A stretch of 64,000 nucleotides of DNA, taken from contig NZ_CP117866.1 of the NCBI RefSeq assembly GCF_028736035.1, forward strand, positions 248,001-312,000, written 5' to 3'. The translations under genes and the position numbers were made by a program. Source of the DNA: Streptomyces sp. T12 (GTDB lineage Bacteria > Actinomycetota > Actinomycetes > Streptomycetales > Streptomycetaceae). Within the stretch, counting starts at the first letter, position 1; the number at the start of each line of letters is the position of its first letter. Below are positions 3-15,354 of this stretch, in pieces. Below the pieces are notes generated by a model, which made no database searches, had not been told where the DNA came from, and worked only from the letters and a program-made list of their open reading frames with translations.

Positions 3-1343
3 GCGGTGACCGGAGTGGTGCCGCGCCTGATGCTGCCGTACGAGATCACCCACACGGGACTCACCGACCTCGTGGTGGTCGGCGACATCCATGAGCGCAA
101 GGCGCGGATGGCCGCCGAGGGCGATGCCTTCGTGGCCTTGCCGGGCGGGCTGGGCACGGCGGAGGAGCTGTTGGAGGTGCTGTCCTGGGCCCAGCTGCGG
201 ATCCACCACAAACCGTGCCTGCTCCTCGACCCGTCCGGCTTCTATCGCCCTCTGCTGTCCTTCCTGGAGCACGCGCGGGACGAGGGCTTCCTGTATCCCG
301 GGGATCTGGAGCGGATCGTGGTGTGCGCGTCGGTCGAGGAGGTGGTGGCGCGGCTGACGCAGGCGCGCGACGTGCCTGCGCAGGCGCCGGCCGCGGTGCG
401 GATACCGAAGGGGCGTGTCGCGTTCCTGTTCTCGGCTGCCGGATCGCAGCAGCCGGGCATGGGGCGCGCGTTCCATGGCTCGTCCCCGGTGTTCGCCGAT
501 GCCCTCGACGAGGTGTGCGCGCTGCTCGATCCGTACGTCGGCGTGCCGTTGCGGGACGTGATGTTCGCCGAGGCGGGGACGCCCACCGCCGCCCTGCTCG
601 ACCGGGTCGCGTTCGGGTATCCGGCGGTCTTCGCGCTGCAGATCGCGCAGTACCGGCTGCTGGAGAGCCAAGGGGTGCGCCCGGACGTGCTGTTCGGGTA
701 CTCGGCCGGTCACATGGCCGCCGCGCACACGGCGGGGGTGCTGTCCCTGCCGGACGCCTGTCGTGCGGTCGGCGCGCTGGCCCGGCTCGCGGACGCGCTG
801 CCGAAGACGGGGGGCATGGCGGCCGTGGAGGCGTCCCCCGCGGAGCTCAGCCCTGGGCCGGGGGCGGTGATCGCGGCGGTCAACGGGCCACGGTCGGTGG
901 TCGTGTCGGGAGACCGTGCGGCGGTGCGGCGGATCTGCGAGGAGTGGGCGGCCCGCGGTCGCCGTACGCATCCGCTCCGCCTGGACGTGGCACCCCACTC
1001 CCCCCATTTCGACGCCCTGCTGGACGACTACCGCCGCGCCCTGGAGTCGCTCGACCTGCGTGCCCCGCGCCTGCCGCTGCTCTCCGACACCACCGCCGAG
1101 CCGGTCGGGGCCGAGGCGGCCACGCCGGACTTCTGGGTGCGGGCGATGCGCGAGCCGATCCGTTTCGCGGACGCCGCCGGCCGACTGCACCGCGACGGTG
1201 TGACGGTCTGCGTCGAGCTCGGGCCGGGTGCCGTCCTGACCGGCATGCTGGACGGCTGTCTGCCCGAGGGCGCGCAGCGGCCCCTGGCGCTCGCCGTGGC
1301 ACGAAACTGGCAGGCTCCGCGGGAGGGGGCCGACGTAGCCTGA
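3..1343 (+). CDS. LOG-family phosphoribohydrolase / malonyl-type acyltransferase fusion (5' end outside window)
   Basis: The reading frame is open to the window edge, and the first visible residues already align with the middle of a LOG (lysine decarboxylase-like) domain, so the true start lies upstream. Residues 1-120 carry the LOG signature [10 protein letters not shown], which in that family binds a nucleotide phosphoribosyl group, preceded by HERK. From about residue 138 the protein is an acyltransferase of the FabD/polyketide AT fold: GSQQPGMG at the start, the nucleophile elbow as GYSAG instead of the usual GHSxG, and APHSPHF supplying the likely catalytic His. The two domains are continuous with no stop. 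A TTG-start ABC exporter follows 29 bases downstream. The substrate is unknown. A link to the siderophore locus further on is only positional. Confidence 0.75.
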
Positions 1344-1372: not shown

Positions 1373-3133
1373 TTGAGCATCGCAGCGACCGAAACCGCCC
1401 CGCCCACCTGGCGGCTGCTTCTGGGCTACGTGCGCCCGCACCGCTGGGCCCTGCTGGCGGGCGCCGTGCTCTCCCTGGTCACGGGTGCCACCGGGCTGTT
1501 GCTGCCGCTGGTGGCGCGGGAGTTGATCGACGACCTGTCCCACGACCGGGCCATCACCGGGGCACTGCTGATCATGTCCGGGCTGGTGGTCGCGAACGCC
1601 GCGGTCGGCGCGCTGGGTTCGTACGTGCTGCGGCGCACCGCCGAGTCGGTGGTGCTCGGGGCGCGGCGCGCCCTGTCGTCGTATCTGCTGCGGCTGCGCA
1701 TCACCGCCGTGGACCGCAGTGAGCCGGGCGATCTGATGGCCCGTATCACCTCGGACACCACCCTGCTGCGCGAGGTCACGACCGACTCGCTGGTGGGTCT
1801 CGGGACCGGAGGCCTGACGCTCGTGGCGACGGTGGTGATGATGGGCCTGGTGGATCCGGTGCTGCTGGCGGTCACGCTGGCCGTGATCCTGGGCGCCGGC
1901 ACGATCCTCGGCGTGATCGTGCCGCGCATCAACCGGGCCAGCCGGCAGGCGCAGGACGCGGTCGGGGTGATGGGGGCCTCGCTGGAGCGGATCCTCGGCG
2001 CGCTGCGCACGGTGAAGGCCTCGGGCGCCGAGCACCGGGAGGAGCAGACGCTGCACGAGGCGGCCGAGGAGTCGTGGCGGCAGAGCGTGCGGGCCGCCAA
2101 GTGGTCGGCGGCGGCGGGCAACACGGCCGGGCTCTCCATGCAGATCGCGTTCATCACGGTGCTCGCGGTGGGCGGGGCGCGGGTGGCGACCGGGGCGGTC
2201 GACATCGGCACGCTGGTCGCCTTCCTGCTGTACGTCTTCTATCTGATGTCGCCGATCCAGCAGGTGGTCGGCGCGATCACGCAGTACCAGACGGGCTCGG
2301 CGGCGCTCGCCCGGATCCAGGAGGCGCTGCGGCTGCCCGCCGAACCGGCCGCCGCGCCCGCGCCGTTGCCCACCGCCGGGGCGGAGCCGGCCGCGGTCGC
2401 GTTCGAGGACGTGCGCTTCCGGTACGCCGACGATCTGCCGTACGTCCACCACGGGGTGACGTTCGCCGTGCCGGCCCAGGGCATGACGGCGTTCGTCGGC
2501 CCGTCCGGCGCGGGCAAGACGACCGTGTTCTCCCTCATCGAGCGGTTCTACGACCCCGAGGGCGGGACCATCACGCTCGACGGGCGGGACCTCGCCGACT
2601 GGGAGCTGCCCCAACTGCGTTCGGCGATCGGCTATGTGGAGCAGGACGCCCCGGTCCTGTCCGGCTCGCTGCGGGACAACCTGCTGCTGGGCAACCCGGA
2701 CGCGGACGACGACGCCCTCACGCGCGTACTGAAGACGACCCGCCTGGACGGCCTGGTCTCCCGGCTGCCGGCCGGCCTCGACACGCTCGTCGGGCACCGG
2801 GGCACCAAGCTCTCCGGCGGCGAACGCCAGCGCGTCGCCATCGCCCGCGCCCTGCTGCGCCGCCCCCGCCTGCTGCTCCTCGACGAGGCCACCTCGCAAC
2901 TCGACGCGGTGAACGAGGCGGCGCTGCGCGACACCGTCGCCGACGTCGCCCGTACGACCACGGTTCTGGTCGTCGCGCACCGGCTGTCGACGGTGACGAT
3001 GGCCGACCGGATCGTGGTGATGGACGGGGGCCGGGTGCGCGCGGTGGGCACCCACCGGGAACTCGTGGCGGCCGATCCGCTCTACGCGGAGCTCGCGGCG
3101 ACGCAGTTCCTGGCGACGCGCTCCGCCGGGTAG
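1373..3133 (+). CDS. ABC exporter, fused permease and ATPase
   Basis: 586-residue half-transporter of the MsbA/LmrA type. An N-terminal six-helix membrane domain (about residues 20-310) is followed by a nucleotide-binding domain with Walker [10 protein letters not shown], signature [15 protein letters not shown] and Walker [13 protein letters not shown], then the H-loop VAHRLST. It should work as a homodimer exporting a lipid, peptide or small molecule. The start is a TTG at 1373 with a GAGGAG ribosome site just before it (1362-1367), and the gene follows the LOG/AT fusion by 29 bases, so the two are probably co-transcribed. Its cargo cannot be read from the sequence; an acylated product of the upstream protein is an inference. 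Confidence 0.85.
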
Positions 3134-3265: not shown

Positions 3266-4111
3266 TCAGCTCTGGAGACGGCGCAGGCGTTCCGTGTCGC
3301 AGGTGCGGGGGCAGGTGGCGCACGCCTCGTCGGGGCGGATCGTGTAGTACATGCAGCAGCCGGTCCGGGTGCGTGTCGGGTGCCGACGGCCGTCGTCGGT
3401 CGTCAGGTACCGGAAGTCTGCGCCGCCCGGGTAGGGAGCGCGCCCGGTCGGCAGCAGTTCGGTGGCCGCCCGTACGGCGTCGTCCTCGCGGCCGAGTGTG
3501 CGGCCGAGGTACCAGATGCCGGAGACCAGGTCGTCGGCGACCATGCCCCACAGGGCGCGTGAGCCACGCCGTGCGGTGGGGCCGATCGCGGTCAGGAGCG
3601 GCTCCATGTGCTCGGCGACCGCGACCCTCAACTCGGCGCGCAGCGCCTCTTCATGAGGGACCGTCACCACTCCCGGGAGCGCCCCCGCAGGGTCGTCGGC
3701 CAGGCAGGTCAGATCGACGCCGGGAACGAGCGTGAACTCGGCGGTGGCGAGGTCCAGCCGCAGGTCCTCGGGCCGGATCCGGGGCACCCGGCGCTCCAGA
3801 TACCAGACCCCGCTCATCAACAGCGAGACGGACCAGGCGTAGTCGTGCAGCGCGCGGGAGGCGGCGACGTGACGGCGCGGCACCGTCCCGTAGCGCTCCT
3901 GGATGCGGGCCGCCTCGGCCTCGACGAAGGCGTCCAGCACAAACTGGTCCTTCGTCAGCTCCGCCGCGGTCACCCCCGCTCGGGCCACCTCGGTGCCGGG
4001 CTCCGCGACACGCACCGACAGGACTTCGCACAGGTCCGCCAGGCGCCCGTAGACGTCACCGAGCGTGCGCGCGACGGCGCCGGTCGGCGAGGTCTTCAGG
4101 GCCACGGACAT
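3266..4111 (-). CDS. FhuF-like ferric-siderophore reductase ([2Fe-2S])
   Basis: 281 residues. The C-terminus ends in a GCCMYYTIRPDEACATCPRTC-type motif, that is CC-x10-C-x2-C, the iron-sulfur ligand set of FhuF-like ferric reductases. The rest is the helical siderophore-binding part typical of the family. It would reduce the iron of an imported ferric siderophore in the cytoplasm and so release it. AGGAG lies a few bases upstream of the ATG at 4111. The gene diverges from the siderophore importer at 4286, and an iron box sits 36 bases upstream of its start, so low-iron induction through a DmdR/DtxR-type repressor is expected. Confidence 0.85.
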   Translation of the reverse strand: MSVALKTSPTGAVARTLGDVYGRLADLCEVLSVRVAEPGTEVARAGVTAAELTKDQFVLDAFVEAEAARIQERYGTVPRRHVAASRALHDYAWSVSLLMSGVWYLERRVPRIRPEDLRLDLATAEFTLVPGVDLTCLADDPAGALPGVVTVPHEEALRAELRVAVAEHMEPLLTAIGPTARRGSRALWGMVADDLVSGIWYLGRTLGREDDAVRAATELLPTGRAPYPGGADFRYLTTDDGRRHPTRTRTGCCMYYTIRPDEACATCPRTCDTERLRRLQS

Positions 4112-4146: not shown

Positions 4147-4165
4147 CTAGGTAAGGCTTACCTTA
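4147..4165. promoter_or_regulatory. Iron box (DmdR/DtxR-type operator) for the FhuF-like gene
   Basis: The 19-mer CTAGGTAAGGCTTACCTTA matches the Streptomyces DmdR1 iron box TTAGGTTAGGCTCACCTAA at 15 of 19 positions by eye and is close to palindromic. It lies between the divergent reductase and importer genes, nearer the reductase start. Confidence 0.8.
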
Positions 4166-4247: not shown

Positions 4248-4286
4248 TTGTAATCTAAAGGAAGCCTAACCTAATCTCACCGCTTG
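4248..4286 (+). promoter_or_regulatory. Importer promoter with embedded iron box, probably leaderless
   Basis: A -35-like TTGTAA (4248-4253), an 18-base spacer and a -10 TAATCT (4272-4277) place the start of transcription at about 4284-4286, which is the GTG start codon itself. The spacer and -10 are covered by an iron box at 4256-4274, whose minus strand reads TTAGGTTAGGCTTCCTTTA and matches the first 12 bases of the DmdR1 consensus exactly. There is no ribosome site before the GTG. The layout therefore predicts a leaderless transcript silenced by iron-loaded repressor sitting in the promoter. Confidence 0.65.
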
Positions 4287-5314
4287 TGACTGCGACCCAA
4301 CAGGACGCACCCCCCACAGGTGTGTCCTTCCGTGCCCTGAGGCACATACCGCTCTTCCTCATCGGCATCGCGGCCCTGGCGCTCTGCACCGCCCTGAGCC
4401 TCGCCCTCGGCGCCCGTTCGGTGCCCCTGTCCACAGTGACGGACGCGCTGTTCGGCGACGCCCATGGACGCGACGCCCTCGTGGTGACCGGGCTGCGCCT
4501 GCCGCGCACCGTCATCGGGCTCGCCGTCGGAGCCGCTCTCGGGGTCGCCGGAGCCGTCGCCCAGGGCATCACCCGCAATCCGCTCGCCTCGCCGACCACG
4601 CTCGGCATCAACGCGGGCGCCGGCTTCGCAGTCGTCGTCGCCATCTTCGCGCTGAAACTCAACAGCCCTGCCCAGTACGTGTGGTTCGCGTTCGCCGGAG
4701 CGGCCGGCGCCGCCCTGTTCGCGCAGGCCCTCGCCCGCCGCGCCGGAGACATCGATCCCATACGGCTGGCGTTGGGCGGCACCGTCCTCCAACTCGTGCT
4801 GCTGTCCTGGACGTGGGCGGTCATGCTGATGAACCAGCGCACCCTGGACGAGGCCCGCTTCTGGCTGGCTGGTTCGCTGTCCGGCCGCACCCTCGACGTG
4901 CTGTGGCCGGTGCTGCCCACCCTGGTGCTCGGGCTGGTGGTGGCTCTGGCCGTCTCCCCCGCCCTCAACGCCCTTGCCCTGGGCGACGATTCGGCCCAGG
5001 CGCTCGGCGTTCCGGTGGCCCGGATCCGCCTGGCCGGCGGCATCGCGGTCGTCCTGCTCGCCGGTTCGGCGGTGGCGGTGGCCGGTCCGATCGCCTTCAT
5101 CGGGCTGGCTGCGCCCCACCTCGTACGGCCGCTGCTCGGCGGCGACCACCGACTGCTGGTGCCCGGCTGTCTGATCGCGGGGCCCCTGCTGCTGCTCGCG
5201 GCCGATGTGCTCGGCCGGATGGTGACCCGCCCCTCGGAGTTGGAGGTCGGCATCGTGACCGCGTTCCTGGGTGCGCCGCTGCTGGCGCTGCTGGCACGGA
5301 GGGTGGCCCGATGA
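4286..5314 (+). CDS. Ferric-siderophore ABC importer permease (FecCD family), first subunit
   Basis: 342-residue polytopic protein of the BtuC/FecCD family, with hallmark segments GAVAQGITRNPLASPTTLGI and GPIAFIGLAAPHLVR, the latter near the loop that contacts the ATPase. It would form half of the membrane channel for a ferric siderophore. The GTG at 4286 is chosen because it fits the family N-terminus; it has no ribosome site, in keeping with a leaderless message. Its stop overlaps the ATG of the next permease (ATGA), so the two are translationally coupled. Confidence 0.9.
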   Translation: MTATQQDAPPTGVSFRALRHIPLFLIGIAALALCTALSLALGARSVPLSTVTDALFGDAHGRDALVVTGLRLPRTVIGLAVGAALGVAGAVAQGITRNPLASPTTLGINAGAGFAVVVAIFALKLNSPAQYVWFAFAGAAGAALFAQALARRAGDIDPIRLALGGTVLQLVLLSWTWAVMLMNQRTLDEARFWLAGSLSGRTLDVLWPVLPTLVLGLVVALAVSPALNALALGDDSAQALGVPVARIRLAGGIAVVLLAGSAVAVAGPIAFIGLAAPHLVRPLLGGDHRLLVPGCLIAGPLLLLAADVLGRMVTRPSELEVGIVTAFLGAPLLALLARRVAR

Positions 5315-6360
5315 GCGCCGCGGTCGTGTCCGTGCGTACGAAGTCCACGTCCCGTGCCCGGGTCCGGCGCCGCGTCCTGGTGTTCGCCACGACCGGCCTG
5401 GCCCTCCTGTTCGTGCTGCTCACCGTGTCCCTGACGACGGGTGAGATACCGATGCCCGCGGGCACGGCGCTGCGTGCGCTGGTCGGGCTCGGGGATCCGG
5501 GGGACGTGCTGGTGGTGCAGCAGTTCCGGGCGCCGCGGTCGGTGGCGGCGATCGTCGCCGGTGCCGGGCTGGGCGCCGCGGGCCTGGTGCTGCAACGCCT
5601 GTTCCGCAATCCGCTCGCGTCTCCCGATGTCATGGGCGTGACCGGCGGCGCCTCGCTGGGCGCGGTCGCGTTGATCGCCGCCGGGGCCTCGCAGGTGCTG
5701 ATCCCGGTCGGGGCGCTGGGCGGCGGGCTGCTCGCGGCGCTGCTGCTGGGCGTGTTCGCCTGGCGCTCGGGGCTCGCGGTCACCCGGCTGGTGCTCACCG
5801 GGCTCGCCGTGCAGGCGGGCCTCGCCGCGGCCGTGAACCTGATGATCGTGCGCTTCCCGGCCGAGCTCGCCGGATCGGCCCTGCAGTGGACGACCGGTTC
5901 GGTGTACGGGCGGACCTGGACGGAGGTGTGGGGAGCGGGCGGCGCCATGGTGCTCGCGCTCGCCGCCGCGCTGGTGATGCACCGGCAGCTGGCGGTGCTC
6001 GACCTCGGGGACGACTCGGCGGGGGCCCTGGGCCTGCGCACCTCCGCCACCCGTCTCCAACTGCTGGTCGTCGCCGTCGTGTTGACGTCGCTGGCGGCCG
6101 CGCTCGCCGGGCCGGTGACGTTCGTCGCGCTCGCCGTGCCGCACATCGTGCGGTTCGTCACCGGGCCGCCGACCGCCGCGTCCCTCGCCCTCGCCGGGCT
6201 CACCGGGGCGGTGCTGCTGCTCGCCTCCGACCTGGTCGTGCAGCACCTGCTGCCGATCGAGGGTCTGCCGGTCGGCGCGGTCACCGCCACGCTCGGCGCG
6301 CCGTGGCTGCTGGTGCTGATGCTGCGCCAGAGCTCGCCCGTCCAGAGGAGTCACCGATGA
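5311..6360 (+). CDS. Ferric-siderophore ABC importer permease (FecCD family), second subunit
   Basis: 349 residues. It shares the family segments of its neighbour: GAAGLVLQRLFRNPLASPDV early on and GPVTFVALAVPHIVRF late, the latter near the coupling loop. A short basic N-terminus precedes the first membrane helix. The start at 5311 overlaps the stop of the first permease; the frame is open further upstream, but that part is antisense-like sequence inside the first permease and has no family similarity. Its own stop overlaps an ATG at 6357. The pair would form the heterodimeric channel. Confidence 0.9.
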   Translation: MSAAVVSVRTKSTSRARVRRRVLVFATTGLALLFVLLTVSLTTGEIPMPAGTALRALVGLGDPGDVLVVQQFRAPRSVAAIVAGAGLGAAGLVLQRLFRNPLASPDVMGVTGGASLGAVALIAAGASQVLIPVGALGGGLLAALLLGVFAWRSGLAVTRLVLTGLAVQAGLAAAVNLMIVRFPAELAGSALQWTTGSVYGRTWTEVWGAGGAMVLALAAALVMHRQLAVLDLGDDSAGALGLRTSATRLQLLVVAVVLTSLAAALAGPVTFVALAVPHIVRFVTGPPTAASLALAGLTGAVLLLASDLVVQHLLPIEGLPVGAVTATLGAPWLLVLMLRQSSPVQRSHR

Positions 6361-6404
6361 CCGGCGCCCGGCACGAACTCTCCACCGGTCTTCAGGAGCC
6401 GCAC

Positions 6405-7223
6405 ATGTCCCCCACCACCAACCAGCTCTCCACGCAGGGCCTCGATCTGCGCTACGGCGACCGGATCGTGGTCGGCGGTCTCGATCTGACGCTGCCGGGC
6501 GGCGCCGTCACGGCGATCGTCGGCCCCAACGCCTGTGGCAAGTCGACCCTGTTGAGGGGGCTCAGTCGGCTTCTCGCCCCGGCCGCCGGCACCGTGACGC
6601 TCGACGGCGCCGACATCCACCGTATGTCCGCCCGTTCCCTCGCCCGCCGCCTGGGTCTGCTGCCGCAGCAGCCGGTGACTCCCGAGGCGATCACCGTCGA
6701 GGCGCTCGTACGACTCGGCCGCTATCCCCATCAGCGGCTGCTCAGCCCCTGGTCGGCCGCCGACCAGAAGGCCGTCGACGAGGCCCTGGAGCGCACCGGC
6801 ACCACGGCGCTGCGCGACCACCCCGTGGACCAGCTCTCCGGCGGTCAGCGGCAACGCGCCTGGATCGCGCTGGCGTTGGCGCAGGACACCGAGCTGCTCC
6901 TGCTCGACGAACCGACCACCTTCCTCGACCTGCGGCACCAGCTCGACGTCCTCGACCTGGTCGCCGCCCTGCACGCCGAGGCGGGCCGCACCGTGGTGAT
7001 GGTGCTGCACGACCTCGGCCAGGCCGCCCGCTACGCGGACCACATGGTGGTCCTCAAGGACGGCCGCCTCGCCGCCGCCGGCGCCCCGGCCGACATCCTC
7101 GACGCGGAGCTGGTCAAGTCCGTGTTCGAGGTCGACTGCCGGGTGATCCCCGACCCGGAGACCGGCACCCCGCTGGTCATCCCGAAGAGCAGCGCGGTAC
7201 GGCATACCGCCGCGACCGCCTGA
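6405..7223 (+). CDS. Ferric-siderophore ABC importer ATPase (FecE/FepC type)
   Basis: 272 residues with Walker A GPNACGKST, a Q-loop near LLPQQPVTP, signature LSGGQRQRAWIALAL, Walker B LLLLDEPTTFLD and the switch histidine in VLHDLGQA. It energises uptake by the two permeases. Two starts are possible: an ATG at 6357 that overlaps the permease stop and has AGAGGAG upstream, and the ATG at 6405 with AGGAG seven bases before it. I chose 6405 because it gives the usual short N-terminus of the family. The alternative adds 16 residues. Confidence 0.88.
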   Translation: MSPTTNQLSTQGLDLRYGDRIVVGGLDLTLPGGAVTAIVGPNACGKSTLLRGLSRLLAPAAGTVTLDGADIHRMSARSLARRLGLLPQQPVTPEAITVEALVRLGRYPHQRLLSPWSAADQKAVDEALERTGTTALRDHPVDQLSGGQRQRAWIALALAQDTELLLLDEPTTFLDLRHQLDVLDLVAALHAEAGRTVVMVLHDLGQAARYADHMVVLKDGRLAAAGAPADILDAELVKSVFEVDCRVIPDPETGTPLVIPKSSAVRHTAATA

Positions 7224-7249
7224 TCAGTCCCCACTCACAGAAAGACCCC

Positions 7250-8269
7250 ATGTTCATGCGCTCTCCCCTGCGCGGAATCGGCCGGCTCCTCGCCGTGCTG
7301 CTCTCCGTCCTGCTCGGTACAGCCGTTCTGGCCGCCTGTGGCAGCGAGGACTCCTCCGACAAGACCGACGCGGCCAAGGCCGCGGCCGACAGCTCCGCCT
7401 TCCCGCGCACCCTCAAGACCGTGATGGGCGACGTGAAGATCCCGTCCCAGCCGAAGCGGGTCGTCGTGCTCGACACCGGTGAGCTGGACGACGTCACCCT
7501 GCTCGGCATCGACCCGGTCGGCGCGGTCGCCCCGCACTTCAAGACTTCGGGCGGCTTCCCGACGTACCTGGACGGCGAGCTCAAGAACACCGTCGACGTC
7601 GGTCCGCTCCTGGAGCCGAACCTGGAGAAGATCGCCTCGCTGAAGCCCGATCTGATCCTGTCCTCCAAGGTCCGGCACGAGAAGGTCTACGACAAGCTCA
7701 GCGCCATCGCCCCGACCGTCTTCACCGAGACCACCGGCGGTGTCTGGAAGGAGAACCTGAAGGTCCACGCCGAGGCGCTGGGCCTGGAGAAGGAGGCCGC
7801 GGCCAAGCTGAAGGAGTACGAGACGCAGGCCAAGGCGCTCGGTGCGGCCATCAAGAAGAAGGACGGCGGCACCATGCCGACCGTCTCCGTGGTCCGCTTC
7901 ATCGCCGGCCCGACCCGCCTGTACCAGACCAACTCCTACAGCGGTGTCGTCCTGAACGACATCGGCTTCCAGCGGCCCAAGTCGCAGATCTCCAGCGACC
8001 CCGAGGTCACGATGAAGGACGTCAGCCCCGAGGAGATCGACCAGGCCGACGCCGACCTGATCTTCGTCACGGCCGCCGACGCCGAGGACAAGACCCAGAA
8101 GAAGGAGGTCGTCTCCAACCCGGTGTGGAAGGACCTGCCGGCCGTGAAGGACGGCAAGGTCTTCGAGGTGCCGGACGAGACGTGGATGTCCGGCATCGGC
8201 GTCCAGGCCGCCGAGGAGATGCTCAAGGACGTGGCGAAGGCCACCGGCGTGGAGCTCCCGGCGAAGTAG
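7250..8269 (+). CDS. Ferric-siderophore-binding lipoprotein of the ABC importer
   Basis: 339 residues. A signal peptide ends in the lipobox LAAC at about residue 30, so the mature protein is lipid-anchored outside the membrane, as expected for a Gram-positive solute receptor. The body fits the FecB/TroA-type binding-protein fold (PSQPKRVVVLDTGELDDVTLLGI near the start, LKPDLILSS in the middle). It captures the ferric siderophore for the permeases just upstream. The start could be ATG 7250 or ATG 7256. A long GC-rich hairpin follows the stop. Confidence 0.9.
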   Translation: MFMRSPLRGIGRLLAVLLSVLLGTAVLAACGSEDSSDKTDAAKAAADSSAFPRTLKTVMGDVKIPSQPKRVVVLDTGELDDVTLLGIDPVGAVAPHFKTSGGFPTYLDGELKNTVDVGPLLEPNLEKIASLKPDLILSSKVRHEKVYDKLSAIAPTVFTETTGGVWKENLKVHAEALGLEKEAAAKLKEYETQAKALGAAIKKKDGGTMPTVSVVRFIAGPTRLYQTNSYSGVVLNDIGFQRPKSQISSDPEVTMKDVSPEEIDQADADLIFVTAADAEDKTQKKEVVSNPVWKDLPAVKDGKVFEVPDETWMSGIGVQAAEEMLKDVAKATGVELPAK

Positions 8270-8283
8270 CCGCCGCTGTTCAC

Positions 8284-8323
8284 GGGGGCGGGCCGCACGC
8301 CCGGACCGGCGTGGCCCGCCCCC
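8284..8323 (+). terminator. Strong hairpin between uptake and biosynthesis genes
   Basis: GGGGGCGGGCC (8284-8294) pairs perfectly with GGCCCGCCCCC (8313-8323) around an 18-base loop. It has no U tract, as is common in Streptomyces. It lies between the binding-protein stop and the ATP-grasp start. It may end part of the transcripts or protect their 3' ends, giving more importer than biosynthetic message. Confidence 0.7.
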
Positions 8324-8359
8324 AACCCCCCACCCGCTAGCGGAAGTTGTTCCTCTGCC

Positions 8360-9535
8360 ATGCGCCTGTACCTGCTCGCGCTCAATCCGACCGACTCCGT
8401 CACCGAGGGCTTCCTGCCCGCCGCGGCCCGGCTCGGACTGGACGTCACCGTCCTGACCGACCAGCCGGAGGCCCACCGCCGCGTCTACCCGGACGTCGAG
8501 ATCCTGCAGTGCGACGTCCGTGACTTCCGCGCCGTGATCACCCGGATCTCGACGCATCACCGCCCCGACGCCGTCTTCACCAACAGCGACCACCTCCAGA
8601 CCCAGGCCGCCCTGGCCGCCGCCTACTTCGACCTCCCCGGCAAGGACTGGCGGGCCACCCTGCGCTGCAAGGACAAGGCCGAGATGCGCCGCCGGCTCGC
8701 GACGGCCGGCGTGGACACCGTGTGGTCGGCCGAGCTGACCGAACCGGTCGCGCCCGGCGACGCGCCGTACCCCTGTGTGGTCAAGCCGCGTGAGGGCGTG
8801 GCCTCCGAGGACGTGGTCCTCGTCGACGGCCCCGAAGAACTGGTGACGCGTACCAAGGAGATCCTGGAGCGTCGGCCGGGCGCCGTCCTGGTCGTCGAGG
8901 AGTACCTCCCGGGCGACCTGTTCACCCTGGAGACCCTCGGCGACGGCAGCGTCCGCCATGTGCTGGGCGGCTTCCACACCGAGCTGTCGCCGCCGCCGTA
9001 CTTCATCGAGGAGCGTCTCACCTTCGTCCCCGCCCACCCCGAGCCGGTCGTCGCGCAGGTCCTGGCGCAACTGGACGCGCTGGGCGTCGGGTTCGGCGCC
9101 TGCCACACCGAGTTCGTGGTGCACGACGGGCGGGCGCGGATCATCGAGGTCAACTACCGCGCCATCGGCGACCAGTGCGATCTGCTGCTGGCCCGGCTGC
9201 TGGAGATCCCGCTCTTCGAGCACATCCTGCGCACCCATCTCGGCGAGCCCCTCCCGGCCGGCCTGGGCGCCCGCCGCGACGGCGCCGCCCGTCTGGAGTA
9301 CCCGTGCGCCGACCGCGCCGGCACGCTGGCGGGTGCCCCCGAGGCCACGGATCTCGATGTCGACGGCGTGCGTCTGACGTACCGTCCCCTGCGTGCGGTG
9401 GGTGAGCGGCACGAGCTGTACGGGACCAACCGCGACTACCTCGGCGTCCTGCGGGCCTGCGGCACCGACCAGCCGACCGTGGACCGGGTGGTGGCCGACT
9501 TCCTGGCCGAGCGGCGCTGGGAGATCCAGCCGTGA
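8360..9535 (+). CDS. ATP-grasp ligase of the siderophore pathway
   Basis: 391 residues of the ATP-grasp superfamily: a Rossmann-like N-terminus (MRLYLLALNPTDS), a central ATP-grasp core with PCVVKPREGVASEDV for nucleotide binding and VVEEYLPGDLF, and the metal-binding strand IIEVNYRAIGDQ. Enzymes of this fold form amide bonds by way of acyl phosphates. It leads a run of overlapping siderophore genes (its stop overlaps the GTG of the first NIS synthetase), so it probably joins an amino acid or diamine unit to a carboxylate during assembly. Typical citrate-type clusters do not need such an enzyme, which makes it the least predictable step. Confidence 0.8.
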   Translation: MRLYLLALNPTDSVTEGFLPAAARLGLDVTVLTDQPEAHRRVYPDVEILQCDVRDFRAVITRISTHHRPDAVFTNSDHLQTQAALAAAYFDLPGKDWRATLRCKDKAEMRRRLATAGVDTVWSAELTEPVAPGDAPYPCVVKPREGVASEDVVLVDGPEELVTRTKEILERRPGAVLVVEEYLPGDLFTLETLGDGSVRHVLGGFHTELSPPPYFIEERLTFVPAHPEPVVAQVLAQLDALGVGFGACHTEFVVHDGRARIIEVNYRAIGDQCDLLLARLLEIPLFEHILRTHLGEPLPAGLGARRDGAARLEYPCADRAGTLAGAPEATDLDVDGVRLTYRPLRAVGERHELYGTNRDYLGVLRACGTDQPTVDRVVADFLAERRWEIQP

Positions 9536-11211
9536 CCGCACCGCCTGTGACGGACACCTGCGAGGCGGAGCTGCTCACGCGGGTGCTCAGCGCCCTGCTG
9601 CGCGAGGACGTGGTCGGGCTGCGCACGAAGGGCACGCTGACGCAGCGGCCCGACGGCCCCTGGATACGGCTGGCCGCCGCAAGCGACGACGCCCTGTTGC
9701 TGCCCGTCGCCGAGGACGGCTACCAGTGCGAGTACGCCGCCCGGCTGCCGCTCCTCGTGCGCGAGTCGGACGGCGCCGAGCTGACGTCGTACGACACCGT
9801 GCTGAGCGCGCTGCGTGCGCTGGCCGAGCCGGAGGACCAGGGCGGCTTCGACGCCTTCGCCGAGGAGTGCCGGCAGACGCTGGCCACCCTGCGGCTGCAC
9901 GCGGCGACGCGTACCGAGGTCATGGACAGGCTCGGGAACCGGACCGGGCTCGGCGGCACTCTGGCGTACGAGACCCTCGCCGCCCGCATCGACCATCCCG
10001 TCTACCCGACCGCGCGCGGCCGCTCCGGGCTGAGCGAGGAGCAACTGCGCGCGTACGCCCCGGAGTTCCATCCGCGTTTCGCGCTGCGGTGGCTCGCCGT
10101 GCCCCGCGAGTCGGTCACCCTGGCCGGTGCCCTCCCGCAGTCCTGGCCCACGCCCGCGACGCTCGGGCTGCCCGGGGTGCGCGACACCCATGTGGCCCTG
10201 CCCGTCCATCCGCTGACCGTCGATGCTCTGTCGGCCGCCGCTCTCCCCGAGGGCGCGGTGCTCGCCGACCGCGCCCATCTGGACGTCGTACCGACCCTGT
10301 CGATGCGTACCGTCGCCACGGTCGCGGATCTCACGCTGCATCTCAAACTCCCCCTCGCCACCGCCACGTTGGGCCTGCGCAACAAGCGGACCGTCAAGCC
10401 CGGCACGCTGATCGACGGCGCGGCGGGACAGCGACTGCTGGAGGCGGTGATCGCCCGGGAGCCCCGCTTCCGGGACACGATCCTGCACGCCGACGAGACG
10501 ACGTACGCGCACGCCGGTCACGAACTGCTGGCGGTCCTGTGCCGCCGCTACCCGGCGGGACTCGACGACGCGGTGGTCGTACCGTTGGCGGCCCTGCTCG
10601 CCGAGGCACCCGACGGGCGGCCGGTCGTCGGCCATCTCGCCGACCGCTTCTACGGCGGCGACCCGCTCGCCCTGCTGGACGCCCTCCTGACGCTGCTGTT
10701 CGACTGGCAGACGACGCTGTTCGGGTACGGCATCGCGCTGGAGTCACACCAGCAGAACATCTCGGTGGTGCTGCGGCCGGGAAGTCTGCGGCTGCTGTTC
10801 AAGGACAACGACGGGCCGCGCATCAACACCGAGCGGCTGGCCGCCGTGCTCCCCGGGCCGTGGGACTTCGACGACGCGCGGATCTTCGGTACGGACGACG
10901 GGCCGGTCGCCGACGTGTTCGCCACCATCACGGTTCATCTGTGCGCCGGGTCCTACGCGTTCGGGCTCACCGGGCACCGCCAGGCCCTGCTGGACCTCAT
11001 CCGTGACCGGCTGACCGAGGCGGTGGACCGGCTCGGCGGCGACGCCGGAGCCGTCCTGCGCGCTCGCGTGCTGGACGCGCCGCGACTGCCGGTGAAGGCG
11101 ATGGTGACGGCCGGGACACTGCTGTCCAAGGAGCGTTCCGGCGCCGCCGACATCAACAAGCACTACACGACCGGCCCCAACTACCTCCTGCCCGGCGGTG
11201 GTTCGGCATGA
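9532..11211 (+). CDS. NIS (IucA/IucC-family) siderophore synthetase, first
   Basis: 559 residues of the NRPS-independent siderophore synthetase family. Conserved points are PVHPLT, SMRTVA followed by LHLKLPLATATLGLRNKR, and ESHQQNIS in the C-terminal thumb. The C-terminal part also holds FKDNDGPRI and the segment PVKAMVTAGTL, as in the FhuF-like C domain of the family. It activates a carboxylate, typically citrate, as an adenylate and condenses it with an amine or alcohol. It uses a GTG start overlapping the ATP-grasp stop, and its own stop overlaps the MFS start, which indicates one operon. Confidence 0.9.
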   Translation: MTAPPVTDTCEAELLTRVLSALLREDVVGLRTKGTLTQRPDGPWIRLAAASDDALLLPVAEDGYQCEYAARLPLLVRESDGAELTSYDTVLSALRALAEPEDQGGFDAFAEECRQTLATLRLHAATRTEVMDRLGNRTGLGGTLAYETLAARIDHPVYPTARGRSGLSEEQLRAYAPEFHPRFALRWLAVPRESVTLAGALPQSWPTPATLGLPGVRDTHVALPVHPLTVDALSAAALPEGAVLADRAHLDVVPTLSMRTVATVADLTLHLKLPLATATLGLRNKRTVKPGTLIDGAAGQRLLEAVIAREPRFRDTILHADETTYAHAGHELLAVLCRRYPAGLDDAVVVPLAALLAEAPDGRPVVGHLADRFYGGDPLALLDALLTLLFDWQTTLFGYGIALESHQQNISVVLRPGSLRLLFKDNDGPRINTERLAAVLPGPWDFDDARIFGTDDGPVADVFATITVHLCAGSYAFGLTGHRQALLDLIRDRLTEAVDRLGGDAGAVLRARVLDAPRLPVKAMVTAGTLLSKERSGAADINKHYTTGPNYLLPGGGSA

Positions 11212-12404
11212 CCGTGCAGACTCTGCGGATGCCGCGCACCGGGTTCGGACGCGGGCACGTGCAAGCGGTGGCCGGCTGCTACTTCGTGGCGTCGTTCGCG
11301 GCGCTCGGCCTGCCGCCGTATCTCACCCAGATCCTGCCGGAGCTGGGCGACCACGGTGCCCGCTGGGCGGGCGTGCTCTACATCGTGCCGACCGTGTTCG
11401 GTGCGCTCGGCGCCCCACTGTGGGGGCGGCTCGCGGACCGGTTCGGCCGCAAACGGCTGCTGCTGCGCGCCCAGTTGGGGCTCACCGTGTCCTTCCTGCT
11501 CGCGGGCTGGGCGGACTCGCTGGCCACGTTCACGGTGGCGCTGGTGCTCCAGGGCATCCTGGGCGGCACCTTCGCCGCGTCCAACGGCTATCTGGGCGCC
11601 GCTCTTCAGGGCCCTGCGCTGTCCAAGGCGCTCACCCTGATGCAGGGAAGCGCGCGGGCCGCGCTGGTGGTCGCGCCGATCGTGGTCGGCTCGCTGTCCG
11701 GCTGGCTCTCCCCGCACCGGCAGTACGCCCTGCTCGCCGTACTGCCGCTCACGGCCGCCCTGTTGCTCGCGGCGCTGCCCGAACCCGAACCCGTCGAGCA
11801 GCGTCGGACCAAGCCCGAGACGGCGGACGACACGCCCGCGGTGGTCTCGCTCAGGGCGCTGTACGCGCTGGAGTTCGCCTTCGTGTTCTCCACCGTCATC
11901 TCCTTCCCCTATCTGATCGCGCTCGTCGACGACCGGATCCCGGGGACCTCGCCGGCGCTGTCCGGTGTGCTGTTCGCCCTGCCCCACCTGGTCTATCTGG
12001 TGGCGGCGCTGGCGGTGCACGCCGCGTTCCGCAACCGGCCGCGGGCCGGGATCGCGCTCGGCTTCGCCTGTATCGCGCTCGGGCTCGCCGGGCACGGGGT
12101 CGCCGGGTCCCTGACCACGCTGATCGCCGTACGGCTGCTGCTCGGCGTGGGGCTCACCCTCGGCCTGGTGTGCCTGTCGGTGCTGGCCGCCGACTGCGCG
12201 AGGGGCCGTGCGCCGGGCGGGATGTTCGGCTCGCTGGAGTTCTTCTCCAAGGCCGGCGCGGTCGCCGCCGGCGTGGCCGCGGCGGTGGGCAGCGCCCGCT
12301 TCGGACCGGCCGCACCCGTGCTGACCGGCGGCGCCGCCGCCGCGGTCACCGTCGTCGTGATTCTTCTCCCCACACTGAACCACCGCACCCGCCGGAGCCG
12401 CTGA
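11208..12404 (+). CDS. MFS exporter, probable siderophore efflux pump
   Basis: 398 residues with about 12 hydrophobic segments. The typical MFS loop motif between helices 2 and 3 is present as GRLADRFGRKRLLL. It is embedded between two NIS synthetases with overlapping starts and stops, as the exporter is in the sfa (staphyloferrin A) and fsl (rhizoferrin) loci, so export of the finished siderophore is the best reading. Confidence 0.87.
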   Translation: MTVQTLRMPRTGFGRGHVQAVAGCYFVASFAALGLPPYLTQILPELGDHGARWAGVLYIVPTVFGALGAPLWGRLADRFGRKRLLLRAQLGLTVSFLLAGWADSLATFTVALVLQGILGGTFAASNGYLGAALQGPALSKALTLMQGSARAALVVAPIVVGSLSGWLSPHRQYALLAVLPLTAALLLAALPEPEPVEQRRTKPETADDTPAVVSLRALYALEFAFVFSTVISFPYLIALVDDRIPGTSPALSGVLFALPHLVYLVAALAVHAAFRNRPRAGIALGFACIALGLAGHGVAGSLTTLIAVRLLLGVGLTLGLVCLSVLAADCARGRAPGGMFGSLEFFSKAGAVAAGVAAAVGSARFGPAAPVLTGGAAAAVTVVVILLPTLNHRTRRSR

Positions 12405-14158
12405 TGCCCTCCCTGACCGACTCCCTCGGGAGCTCCTCCTCCAAGCTCTCGACGGCCGAACTCCCCACCGCCGACGAAGCGGTGGCCCACACCCTGCTCA
12501 ACTGCCTGCTGCGCGAGGTGTCCGGCCCCGAACACCAGACGGTCGTCACGGACGGCAACCTGCTGCTGCGCCTGCCCCGCCGCGGGGTCCTCCTGCGCGT
12601 CGCCCTGCGCAGGTCCTCGCTCCTCGGGGCGCACCGGTTCACCGGCCCGGTGAGCGAGCAGCGTGACGGCGACTGGGCGGAGGTGGGCTGGCGGCGTCTG
12701 GCCGAGTACACGCACGACGAGCTGTCGCTGCGCACGGGTGTGCGCAACGAGGAGTTCCTGGAGCAGATCGCCTCCAGCCACGAGGCCGTGGCGACCGCGC
12801 TGGCCGGCCCGCGGGCGGCTTCGCCCTCGGCCGGCCCGCTCGCCCCTCTCCCGGCCTATCTCGCCTCCGAGCAGTCCCTGCTGTTCGGCCACCGCTTCCA
12901 CCCCACGCCCAAGGCCCGCACCGGCGACCCGCGCGCCTGGTCGGCGTACGCCCCGGAGGTCGGGGCCGCCTTCCCGCTGCGGCACCTTGCCGTGCGCGCC
13001 GACCTGATCGCCGAGGAGTACGTCGAGGCCTCGGCCGTCGCCCCGCTGGACCGGCAGCGCACGGACGTCCCCGACGGCTACCGTCTGCTGCCCGCCCACC
13101 CCTGGCAGTACGAGACGCTCCGCGAGCACCCGTTGCTGCGCGCGGCCTTCGACCGCGGCGACGTCCTCGACCTCGGCCCGGGCGGACGGCCCTTCGCCGC
13201 GACGGCATCGGTGCGCACCCTGTACGACGGCGAGACGTTCCTGAAGTTCAGCCTGAACGTGCGGATCACCAACTGCCTGCGCAAGAACAGCACGTACGAG
13301 CTGTCGGGCGCCGTCGCCCTCACCCGTGTCCTGGCCCCGGCGCTCGCCGACCTGGCCGAGCGTTTCCCCGGCAGCGCGGTGCTGCGCGAGCCCGCCTACC
13401 GTACGCTCGCCCTCCCCGGCCCGGACGGCACGCCGGACCGCGAGCTGTTCGAGGGCTTCGGGGTCATCGTCCGCGAAGGCCTGCCGCAGCGCCTCGCGCC
13501 GGGCACCACTCCCCTGCTGGCGGCCGCGGTGGCCGACGAGTACCCGACCAGTCCCGCGCACATCTCCCGCCTCCTGCGGGGCGCGGACGCCCGCACCGCC
13601 CTCGCCTGGTGGTCGGCGTACCTGGAACTGCTCGTCCCGCCGGTCATGTCCGCCTACTTCGACCACGGCCTGGTCCTGGAGCCGCACCTGCAGAACGTCC
13701 TGGTCTGTGTCGACGGCGACGGCATGCCCGCCCAGGTCCTCTTCCGCGACCTGGAGGGCACCAAGCTCGTCCCCGACCACCACGGGGACACCCTCGCCGC
13801 GCTGCCGCCCGAGGTGGCGGGCCCTATGACGTACGACGCCCAGCGCGGCTGGGACCGGGTCGTCTACTGCCTGCTGGTCAACCACATCGCCGAGCTGCTC
13901 GCCGCGCTCGCCGACCTGCACCCCGAGGCGGAGGCCGCGCTGTGGGCGCGGGTGCGCGAAACGCTGCGGACGTACGCCGACCGGGACGGCTGCCCGCCCC
14001 GTCTCGCCGCCCTGCTCGCCGGGGTACCGCTGCCCGCCAAGGCCAACCTGCTCACCCGCTGGGAGCGCAAGGCCGACCGCGAGGCCGGTTACGTCCGGCT
14101 GCCGTCCCCCCTCGCCGCGGACATCCTGCGCGACACGAGCGGAAGTGCTGCCCGATGA
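12404..14158 (+). CDS. NIS (IucA/IucC-family) siderophore synthetase, second
   Basis: 584 residues. Family landmarks are LLPAHPWQYE, SVRTLYDGETFLKFSLNV followed by RITNCLRKNS, the thumb motif EPHLQNVLV, and KANLLTRW near the C-terminus. The ATG at 12404 shares one base with the MFS stop. With the first synthetase it would carry out two successive couplings, for instance adding two citrate units to one diamine. Which of the two acts on free citrate cannot be decided here. Confidence 0.9.
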   Translation: MPSLTDSLGSSSSKLSTAELPTADEAVAHTLLNCLLREVSGPEHQTVVTDGNLLLRLPRRGVLLRVALRRSSLLGAHRFTGPVSEQRDGDWAEVGWRRLAEYTHDELSLRTGVRNEEFLEQIASSHEAVATALAGPRAASPSAGPLAPLPAYLASEQSLLFGHRFHPTPKARTGDPRAWSAYAPEVGAAFPLRHLAVRADLIAEEYVEASAVAPLDRQRTDVPDGYRLLPAHPWQYETLREHPLLRAAFDRGDVLDLGPGGRPFAATASVRTLYDGETFLKFSLNVRITNCLRKNSTYELSGAVALTRVLAPALADLAERFPGSAVLREPAYRTLALPGPDGTPDRELFEGFGVIVREGLPQRLAPGTTPLLAAAVADEYPTSPAHISRLLRGADARTALAWWSAYLELLVPPVMSAYFDHGLVLEPHLQNVLVCVDGDGMPAQVLFRDLEGTKLVPDHHGDTLAALPPEVAGPMTYDAQRGWDRVVYCLLVNHIAELLAALADLHPEAEAALWARVRETLRTYADRDGCPPRLAALLAGVPLPAKANLLTRWERKADREAGYVRLPSPLAADILRDTSGSAAR

Positions 14159-15354
14159 CCGAGCCCACAGTCGCGGTCCGCGACCGCGTCCTGTCCCTGC
14201 CCTCCGTCGAACTCCCCGCGTACGTCTACGACTTGACGGCCCTGCGCACCCACGCCGCCGCCGTGCGGGACGCCCTGCCCGAGCGGGTCGAGCTGTACTA
14301 CGCCGCCAAGGCCAACCCGGAGCCGGAGATCCTCGCCGCGCTCGGCCCGTACGTCGACGGCTACGAGGTCTCCTCGGGCGGCGAACTCGCCCACGTCGCG
14401 GGGGCGGTGCCGGGCCGGCCGCTCGCCTTCGGAGGGCCCGGCAAGACGCCGGGCGAGGTGACGGCCGCGCTGGAGACGGGAGTCGAGCGCTTCCACGTCG
14501 AGAGCCTCCACGAGCTGTGCATGCTGGCGGAGTTGGCCCGGAGCTACGCGCCGGGTCGGCGGGTTGCGGTGCTGCCCCGGGTCAACCTGCCGGTGGCCGA
14601 CGGGTCGTTGGCGGGCAGCTCGCTGGCGATGGGCGGGCGTCCGACACCGTTCGGGATGGACCCGGCGCAGGCTGCCGACGCTGTCCGCGCCCTCACCGAC
14701 GGGACGTATCCGCACCTCGAACTGCGCGGCATCCACGCCCACTTGGCCAGCGGCCTTCAGGCGGCCGAGCAGGTGGCGGTGGCGGAGTCGGTCGTCGGCT
14801 GGGCGACGGGCCTGGGCGTACCGCTCGCCGAGGTGAACGTCGGCGGCGGCATGCACGTCGACTACGCCGACCCTCGGCGCCGCTTCGACTGGGCCACGTA
14901 CGGCAAGGGGCTCGCCCGGCTCGCCGAGGCGCACCCGGAGCTGACGCTGCGCATCGAGCCGGGCCGGGCGCTGACGGCGTACTGCGGCTGGTACGCCACC
15001 GAGGTGCTGGACGTCAAGCACAGCCACGGCGAGCAGTTCGGCGTCGTGCGCGGCGGCACGCATCATCTGCGGACCCCGGCGACGAAGGGCCACGACCAGC
15101 CCTGTTCCGTGCTGCCGGTGGACGCCTGGCCGCACCCCTGGCCGCGTCCGGCGGCCGACGGCGAGCAGGTCACCCTGGCCGGCCAGCTGTGCACGCCGAA
15201 GGACCTGCTGGCCCGCCATGTGCCCGCGCCCGGACTGCGGGCCGGGGACCGGGTGGCGTTCTCGCTGGCGGGGGCCTACGCCTGGAACATCTCCCATCAC
15301 GACTTCCTGATGCACCCCAGGCCGGGCTTCCACTTCCTGGGCGCCGCCGGGTAG
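14155..15354 (+). CDS. PLP-dependent decarboxylase (type III Orn/DAP fold), siderophore diamine supply
   Basis: 399 residues of the alanine-racemase-fold decarboxylase family (LysA, SbnH, FslC type). The lysine that holds pyridoxal phosphate is in YYAAKANPEPE; a glycine-rich phosphate-binding turn is VNVGGGMH, EPGRAL lies nearby, and the C-terminal CTPKDLL and AYAWNISHHDF fit the dimer-shared active site. In related siderophore clusters such an enzyme makes the diamine backbone from ornithine or from a citryl-amino acid intermediate. It overlaps the second NIS gene (ATGA) and closes the operon just before a strong terminator. Confidence 0.87.
   Translation: MTEPTVAVRDRVLSLPSVELPAYVYDLTALRTHAAAVRDALPERVELYYAAKANPEPEILAALGPYVDGYEVSSGGELAHVAGAVPGRPLAFGGPGKTPGEVTAALETGVERFHVESLHELCMLAELARSYAPGRRVAVLPRVNLPVADGSLAGSSLAMGGRPTPFGMDPAQAADAVRALTDGTYPHLELRGIHAHLASGLQAAEQVAVAESVVGWATGLGVPLAEVNVGGGMHVDYADPRRRFDWATYGKGLARLAEAHPELTLRIEPGRALTAYCGWYATEVLDVKHSHGEQFGVVRGGTHHLRTPATKGHDQPCSVLPVDAWPHPWPRPAADGEQVTLAGQLCTPKDLLARHVPAPGLRAGDRVAFSLAGAYAWNISHHDFLMHPRPGFHFLGAAG

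What the first reader, a model, noticed from the sequence alone, without database searches (positions are those of the whole stretch)
4286..15354. Siderophore operon combining an ATP-grasp ligase with two NIS synthetases and a PLP decarboxylase
Nine genes run in one direction from importer to decarboxylase, most with overlapping ends. MFS, two NIS synthetases and a racemase-fold PLP enzyme recall the sfa (staphyloferrin A) and fsl (rhizoferrin) loci, where two citrates are joined to a diamine or ornithine. The ATP-grasp ligase is not part of those pathways and points to an extra amide bond or different building block. It is neither the desferrioxamine set (no lysine hydroxylase or acyltransferase) nor an NRPS siderophore. 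The product may be new or may belong to a common but unassigned Streptomyces type.
Basis: partly seen in the sequence, partly recalled or inferred. Interest (0 to 1): 0.7.

Follow-up and report, generated by a model that had tools for sequence, protein, structure and literature searches.

The report
Vibrioferrin-type siderophore operon in Streptomyces
This Streptomyces gene cluster has the same five genes in the same order as the known bacterial recipe for vibrioferrin, a citrate-based iron-scavenging molecule, so it is most likely a known kind of pathway in a less studied host rather than a new type of siderophore.

Summary
In detail: nine co-directional genes at 4286-15354, six of eight junctions overlapping. 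The reading is half right. Vibrio, Pantoea (annotated PvsA), Cupriavidus and Rhodococcus loci share it. All five Vibrio proteins have their best genome-wide hit in these five genes, by wide margins. NIS1 falls in one clade with a V. harveyi PvsB; NIS2 is AcsD/PvsD-like and keeps AcsD's serine-recognition residues. So the ATP-grasp enzyme is the PvsA of that pathway, not an addition to rhizoferrin or staphyloferrin A chemistry. Two iron boxes precede the operon (none in 100 shuffles); 70 of 76 relatives have one upstream. Expected product: vibrioferrin or a close congener; no chemistry was tested. It is common in Streptomyces: of the 80 best relatives of NIS1 kept from 254, 75 show the four biosynthetic genes in order. 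Side finding: importer and MFS exporter are absent together in 23 of 69 operons.

The parts
3266..4111 (-). FhuF-like ferric-siderophore reductase (C-terminal 2Fe-2S motif), divergent from the operon
   Evidence: Pfam FhuF_C 27.1 bits over cut-off 20.5; NCBIfam FhuF models only weak, below cut-off; a homologue lies in 61 of the 80 Streptomyces loci, some of the other 19 being short contigs
4147..4165 (+). iron box 1 (IdeR/DmdR-type, 1 mismatch to a consensus recalled from memory)
   Evidence: 2 matches in the window at up to 3 mismatches, 0 in 100 shuffles
4256..4274 (+). iron box 2 (2 mismatches), 11 nt before the first start codon
   Evidence: 70 of 76 relatives with enough upstream sequence carry a box within 450 nt upstream of the operon
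4286..5314 (+). FecCD-family permease 1 of siderophore importer
   Evidence: Pfam FecCD 298.7 bits
5311..6360 (+). FecCD-family permease 2
   Evidence: Pfam FecCD 251.9 bits on the longer mechanical ORF; NCBIfam; start read
6357..7223 (+). FecE/FepC-like importer ATPase
   Evidence: NCBIfam FecE model 312.1 bits, below its cut-off 375
7250..8269 (+). iron-siderophore periplasmic-type binding protein
   Evidence: Pfam Peripla_BP_2 119.5 bits
8360..9535 (+). PvsA-like ATP-grasp amino-acid ligase (proposed: couples L-alanine to O-citryl-ethanolamine)
   Evidence: best hit of the Vibrio counterpart in the whole genome, 217.8 vs 71.9 bits for the next; 36-49% identical to the four reference loci
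9532..11211 (+). PvsB-like type B NIS synthetase (proposed: adds 2-oxoglutarate to the alanine amine)
   Evidence: 253.2 vs 31.8 bits; clade with V. harveyi PvsB, 99/100 support
11208..12404 (+). PvsC-like MFS exporter
   Evidence: (208.1 vs 34.8 bits)
12404..14158 (+). PvsD/AcsD-like type A NIS synthetase (proposed: makes O-citryl-L-serine)
   Evidence: best solved relative AcsD, 244.9 bits; (269.1 vs 97.2 bits); residues equivalent to AcsD R305, E442, H444, R501, K563 conserved; start read
14155..15354 (+). PvsE-like PLP decarboxylase (proposed substrate O-citryl-L-serine)
   Evidence: best solved relatives 6knh (272.3 bits) and 6knk (269.6 bits; SbnH by PMC7857480); (321.4 vs 111.4 bits); start read

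Best explanation
It is a vibrioferrin-type (pvsABCDE) operon with its own FecBCDE-like importer, in Streptomyces. Proposed route (each step inferred from relatives, none shown here): the type A synthetase (12404-14158) adenylates citrate and esterifies it with L-serine; the PLP enzyme (14155-15354) decarboxylates O-citryl-serine to O-citryl-ethanolamine; the ATP-grasp ligase (8360-9535) couples the carboxyl of alanine to that amine; the type B synthetase (9532-11211) adds 2-oxoglutarate to the alanine amine, and the product cyclises to the hydroxy-pyrrolidinone of vibrioferrin (structure recalled; C16H22N2O12, calculated mass 434.117). The MFS protein exports it, the ABC importer takes the ferri-siderophore back, the FhuF-like protein may reduce the iron, and an IdeR/DmdR-type repressor (recalled) shuts the region between the divergent genes when iron is plentiful. 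Class membership is well supported; exact product identity (vibrioferrin rather than a congener) is less certain, about 0.6.
For: Same five genes, same order and strand in Vibrio sp. THAF190c, Pantoea soli, Cupriavidus necator H16 and Rhodococcus sp. WAY2, i.e. 4 of 5 plasmid loci opened for this; the fifth, S. chartreusis L015, has A, B, D, E without the MFS. The Vibrio NIS1 is 78% identical to a V. harveyi protein named 'Vibrioferrin amide bond forming protein PvsB'. Each of the five Vibrio proteins has its best hit in the whole host genome at the matching window gene, next-best hits far below. NIS tree: NIS1 with PvsB (12 rows, 99/100). [quoted passage not shown] The decarboxylase keeps SbnH R304, K347 and H379, which lie at the citryl part (passages of PMC7857480; alignment). 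Iron boxes; 70 of 76 relatives; 111 boxes in 38,760 nt upstream against 16 in 1,375,492 nt elsewhere. Literature: pvsABCDE linked to vibrioferrin by gene disruption and by expression in E. coli (passage of PMC5577590); identical gene order noted in Azotobacter (passage of PMC4465626).
Against: Identity to the Vibrio proteins is only 33-44%, so substrates may have shifted. The V. parahaemolyticus proteins were not compared directly. NIS2 alone does not tell vibrioferrin from achromobactin: the Sodalis achromobactin-type synthetase groups inside the D proteins (98/86 with Vibrio and Pantoea), the 13-row D group has only 93/83, and another synthetase of this genome (L106 8916-10433) also falls inside it. 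At SbnH S308/W309 the window decarboxylase has T/K while Vibrio and Sodalis have A/Q, and its HAHLASG motif (shared with Rhodococcus) differs from HFHLMSH of Vibrio, Pantoea and Cupriavidus. The amino-acid pocket of the ATP-grasp enzyme was not examined. Two reviews assign the steps otherwise (PvsE on serine, PvsA as ester former); my order follows homology. The Pantoea, Cupriavidus and Rhodococcus loci have an extra aldolase/citrate-lyase-family gene, absent from the window operon. No product was measured.
Confidence: 0.85

Rival explanations
1. A vibrioferrin congener: same enzyme logic, but one building block changed, e.g. another amino acid chosen by the ATP-grasp ligase, 2,3-diaminopropionate in place of serine, or another 2-oxoacid. 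(This is a sub-case of the vibrioferrin-type reading, so the odds overlap.)
For: 33-44% identity to the Vibrio proteins and a changed decarboxylase motif in the window and in Rhodococcus; AcsD itself accepts 2,3-diaminopropionate and other nucleophiles.
Against: Serine-recognition residues kept; no diaminopropionate synthase gene among the nine operon genes.
Confidence: 0.3
2. Achromobactin- or staphyloferrin B-like product.
For: NIS2 is close to AcsD, the decarboxylase to SbnH and to the Sodalis homologue, NIS1 has its best NCBIfam score with SbnC (62.8 bits, cut-off 700); NIS2 is not separated from the Sodalis type in the tree.
Against: Two NIS synthetases where the Sodalis locus has three; no aminotransferase or diaminopropionate synthase among the nine operon genes; NIS1 groups with PvsB apart from the Sodalis synthetases; the MFS matches the Sodalis MFS only weakly, 26 bits; the ATP-grasp ligase would be unexplained.
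Confidence: 0.04
3. One reading: a rhizoferrin/staphyloferrin A-type pathway with an added ATP-grasp step, product new or unassigned.
For: MFS has an FslB match of 64 bits against a cut-off of 600; architecture loosely alike.
Against: NIS proteins match FslA at only 29 bits (cut-off 1000); a gene-for-gene homologous operon with a known product exists.
Confidence: 0.03

Closest known systems
pvsABCDE, vibrioferrin operon of Vibrio (and Azotobacter)
   Same: Five homologous genes in the same order (Vibrio sp. THAF190c compared); FecCD/ATPase/binding-protein importer nearby in that Vibrio locus
   Different: 33-44% identity to that Vibrio locus; no TonB receptor gene in the window operon; importer upstream in the same direction; product not measured. 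Azotobacter sequences were not compared (paper passage only)
pvs-like loci of Rhodococcus sp. WAY2 and Cupriavidus necator H16
   Same: Same five genes and order; Rhodococcus 46-57% identical, the closest of the four reference loci (Embleya records gave nearer hits but were not opened)
   Different: They carry an additional aldolase/citrate-lyase-family gene
Achromobactin (acs)
   Same: AcsD-type synthetase plus O-citryl-serine decarboxylase
   Different: The Sodalis locus L102, which I take for achromobactin-type from its gene content, has three NIS synthetases and a diaminobutyrate transaminase and no annotated ATP-grasp ligase
avs cluster of S. avermitilis, called 'vibrioferrin-like' in PMC9394381 (passages)
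   Same: Described as polyhydroxycarboxylate siderophore cluster with siderophore synthetases and a DAP-type decarboxylase
   Different: Listed there as three synthetase components plus decarboxylase, four genes; its sequence was not compared here

Membership tests
Vibrioferrin operon (pvsABCDE) | Five genes in the order ATP-grasp, NIS, MFS, NIS, PLP decarboxylase on one strand | tested here: met
Vibrioferrin operon (pvsABCDE) | Each gene orthologous to the Vibrio counterpart | tested here: met
   proteins of the Vibrio sp. locus against the own genome, best hits at all five window genes; the reverse search against a whole Vibrio genome was not run
Vibrioferrin operon (pvsABCDE) | PvsB-clade (type B) synthetase | tested here: met
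   tree of 30 rows, 99/100; use of 2-oxoglutarate itself not tested
Vibrioferrin operon (pvsABCDE) | Type A synthetase able to use citrate and L-serine | tested here: inconclusive
   all five AcsD residues checked are conserved, activity not assayed; tree does not separate it from the achromobactin type
Vibrioferrin operon (pvsABCDE) | Decarboxylase of a citryl-amino acid | tested here: inconclusive
   R304, K347, H379 of SbnH kept; S308, W309 not
Vibrioferrin operon (pvsABCDE) | Iron-dependent regulation | tested here: inconclusive
   two iron boxes; a box upstream in 70 of 76 relatives; expression not measured
Vibrioferrin operon (pvsABCDE) | Product is vibrioferrin | not testable with these tools
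   needs LC-MS
Staphyloferrin A / rhizoferrin (sfa, fsl) | SfaB/SfaD- or FslA-type synthetases, no ATP-grasp ligase (definition recalled) | tested here: not met
   FslA model 29 bits against cut-off 1000; ATP-grasp present; no sfa synthetase model appeared in the NCBIfam answer and none was compared directly
Achromobactin (acs) | Three NIS synthetases and diaminobutyrate aminotransferase (definition recalled; so in Sodalis L102) | tested here: not met
   two NIS and no aminotransferase among the nine operon genes
Desferrioxamine (des) | Lysine decarboxylase, N-hydroxylase, acyltransferase, DesD (definition recalled) | tested here: not met
   no hydroxylase or acyltransferase among the nine operon genes; another synthetase of this genome (G000:C1:3754802) groups with the second Sodalis synthetase, 100/99, and is DesD-like only by my label

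The most novel reading that the evidence does not exclude
Streptomyces carry two forms of a vibrioferrin-type pathway: one with private export and import genes, and one with biosynthesis only, in which the importer cassette and the MFS exporter, although they sit at two separate places in the operon, have come and gone together several times; in the genomes checked neither the exporter nor a close binding-protein homologue is found elsewhere. The stripped form would make its siderophore for use through shared or unrelated transporters, and the product may be a congener of vibrioferrin and not vibrioferrin itself.
Probability: 0.25. Interest if true: 0.5.

Novelty: new member of a known kind. 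Interest (0 to 1): 0.3.

Why it matters
It gives an assignable product class to a siderophore locus present in many Streptomyces species (75 of the 80 best loci kept show it). If confirmed, vibrioferrin, known as a weak, photolabile chelator of marine bacteria, would also be a common soil actinobacterial product, and the repeated joint absence of export and import genes would make sharing of this siderophore testable.

Tried and rejected
Rejected: sfa/fsl kinship (FslA 29 bits); achromobactin and staphyloferrin B (gene content and the NIS1 tree); the S. avermitilis avs cluster as the same locus (it lists three synthetases; sequence not compared). Relocation of the exporter or binding-protein gene in the stripped form was tested and not found; permeases and ATPase were not searched genome-wide.

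Led nowhere: Sinorhizobium meliloti pSymA stretch L103, fetched as a rhizobactin yardstick, gave no NIS hit in the stretch chosen. The founding vibrioferrin paper is not held. A terminator and promoter scan after the operon found none. No structure was predicted: by the tool's description proteins from annotated plasmid records are not accepted, and the other rows at hand were too alike; this was not tried.

Full report
Anatomy. The window is G000:C1:248001-312000; its nearest named protein relatives are from Streptomyces. Nine genes run on the + strand from 4286 to 15354: two FecCD permeases, a FecE-like ATPase, a periplasmic-type binding protein, an ATP-grasp ligase, a NIS synthetase, an MFS protein, a second NIS synthetase and a PLP decarboxylase of the ornithine/DAP/arginine fold. 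Six of eight junctions overlap, five by four bases and one by one. A FhuF-like gene faces away at 3266-4111. The region between has two iron boxes at 4147 and 4256; 100 shuffles of the window gave none at the same stringency (the consensus is recalled).

Identity of the system. The last five genes have the order ATP-grasp, NIS, MFS, NIS, PLP decarboxylase, that of pvsABCDE. I opened five plasmid loci: Vibrio sp. THAF190c (L011), Pantoea soli with the first gene annotated PvsA (L012), Cupriavidus necator H16 (L013), Rhodococcus sp. WAY2 (L014) and S. chartreusis (L015, no gene annotation). The first four have the five genes in this order; L015 has A, B, D, E without the MFS. Other plasmid records with hits (V. 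fortis, Piscirickettsia, Embleya, Nonomuraea, R. oxybenzonivorans) were not opened. The Vibrio NIS1 is 78% identical to a V. harveyi protein named vibrioferrin amide bond forming protein PvsB (P0146). The V. parahaemolyticus proteins themselves were not compared. Window against the four references: A 36-49%, B 33-46%, C 36-47%, D 33-48%, E 44-57%.

Orthology. The five Vibrio proteins were searched against the whole host genome. The best hits were the five window genes, in order, with 217.8, 253.2, 208.1, 269.1 and 321.4 bits; the next-best places had 71.9, 31.8, 34.8, 97.2 and 111.4. The genome has six NIS-domain places, two of them in this operon. In a tree of 30 NIS rows, NIS1 sits with the Vibrio, Pantoea, Cupriavidus and Rhodococcus B proteins (12 rows, 99/100), apart from the three Sodalis synthetases. 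NIS2 sits with the D proteins, but that group (13 rows, 93/83) also holds the Sodalis AcsD-type enzyme and another synthetase of this genome, so NIS2 alone does not separate vibrioferrin from achromobactin. Four rows have long branches, three of them other synthetases of this genome, and the deepest forks are weak. The Sodalis locus (L102) is taken as achromobactin-type from its gene content.

Enzyme logic. NIS2's closest solved relative is AcsD (244.9 bits), which esterifies citrate with L-serine. PMC3323832 (passages read) gives E442 as binding the amine and R501 and K563 as proposed to recognise the serine carboxylate, and mentions earlier H444 and R305 mutants. Counting along the HMMER alignment all five are conserved in NIS2, and they are identical in all six aligned sequences. 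The decarboxylase's closest solved relatives are 6knh (272.3 bits) and 6knk (269.6 bits); PMC7857480 (passages read) identifies 6knk as SbnH, an N-citryl-diaminopropionate decarboxylase, and AcsE as an O-citryl-serine decarboxylase. SbnH R304, K347 and H379 are kept, S308 and W309 are not (T and K here). The ATP-grasp protein's best PDB hits are L-amino-acid ligases. Type B synthetases act on 2-oxoglutarate (passage of PMC6836290). Placed on the vibrioferrin skeleton (recalled) this gives citrate-serine ester, decarboxylation, alanine amide, 2-oxoglutarate amide and cyclisation. This is inference; two reviews assign PvsE to serine and PvsA to the ester, and the first adds that the enzymes' specific functions remain untested.

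Spread. A protein search gave 2645 relatives of the ATP-grasp enzyme among 8000 scored candidates; the 120 listed are 87% or more identical. In 61 genomes a strong orthologue (66% identity or more) was found in 12: 10 of 37 of the same genus including its own, and 2 of 24 others. In GTDB species representatives 254 stretches encode a relative of NIS1; the best 80 were kept, all titled Streptomyces, and the other 174 were not seen. Of the 80, 75 have all of A, B, D and E, in the same order and strand in 75 of 75; 5 were incomplete in the locus or below the threshold (L046, L052, L061, L092, L093) and were left out. A FhuF-like homologue lies in 61 of the 80.

Regulation in relatives. Of 80 loci, 76 had 450 nt upstream; 70 of 76 have an iron box there at up to 3 mismatches (none in L036, L051, L062, L069, L077, L093); 111 boxes in 38,760 nt upstream, 16 in 1,375,492 nt elsewhere.

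Side finding. In 49 of the 75 complete loci an MFS hit lies between B and D (in L059 only a 228-nt piece); in 26 there is none, the gap being 69-523 nt. Among 68 loci with at least 5.6 kb upstream plus the window: both MFS and importer 41, neither 23, MFS only 5, importer only 0. On a tree of the four biosynthetic proteins, about 9 independent contrasts go the same way and none the other way (8.8 on average; sign test median p 0.004); the direction, loss or gain, was not determined. In whole genomes, 7 of 12 carriers lack the MFS at E 1e-15, and the same 7 have no binding-protein match above 48% identity at E 1e-30; the D orthologue is present in 12 of 12. Permeases and ATPase were not searched genome-wide, and in G032 the A and D genes lie on different contigs, so its operon form was not seen.

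Literature. Listings with titles and abstract starts were seen for vibrioferrin with Streptomyces (41 papers, 30 listed), with Actinobacteria or NIS synthetase (33, 20 listed), with actinomycetes and gene cluster (18) and with Streptomyces, siderophore and antiSMASH (14). Passages were read in PMC7385001 (antiSMASH table giving vibrioferrin 18% for a Streptomyces region), PMC9022529 (cites the vibrioferrin paper among references for siderophore clusters of a Streptomyces), PMC9394381 (avs of S. avermitilis called vibrioferrin-like), PMC11219617 and PMC12093950 (vibrioferrin not from a Streptomyces). I saw no report of vibrioferrin isolated from a Streptomyces in these, but most subscription papers are not held.

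Verdict. Real, well-formed siderophore operon; a new member of a known kind.

Noticed in passing
L015-L095 (Streptomyces relatives); G009, G030, G031, G032, G034, G035, G036: Importer cassette and MFS exporter are absent together in 23 of 69 operons although they sit at two separate places; in the 7 genomes checked the MFS and a close binding-protein homologue are not found elsewhere.
   Followed up: partly
window 8284-8323: Strong G+C-rich inverted repeat (GGGGGCGGGCC ... GGCCCGCCCCC) in the gap between the binding-protein and ATP-grasp genes, without a T run; could set the ratio of transport to biosynthesis transcripts.
   Followed up: no
window 6-1343: ORF with a LOG-family (PF03641) stretch joined to an acyltransferase domain (PF00698), an odd combination at the left edge of the window, next to an MsbA-like ABC exporter at 1373-3133.
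   Followed up: no
L106 (G000:C1:8762000-8780000): Two divergent NIS-domain genes in the same genome, one of them (8916-10433) a shorter relative of the PvsD-like synthetase, about 41-47% identical.
   Followed up: partly
L012, L013, L014: Pantoea, Cupriavidus and Rhodococcus pvs-like loci carry an aldolase/citrate-lyase-family gene that is not annotated in the Vibrio locus and absent from the window operon; it may supply citrate in the manner recalled for SbnG.
   Followed up: no
L076, L081, L083: Three Streptomyces loci keep the MFS but have a different importer set next to the operon, permeases and ATPase on the other strand (38-61% identical).
   Followed up: no
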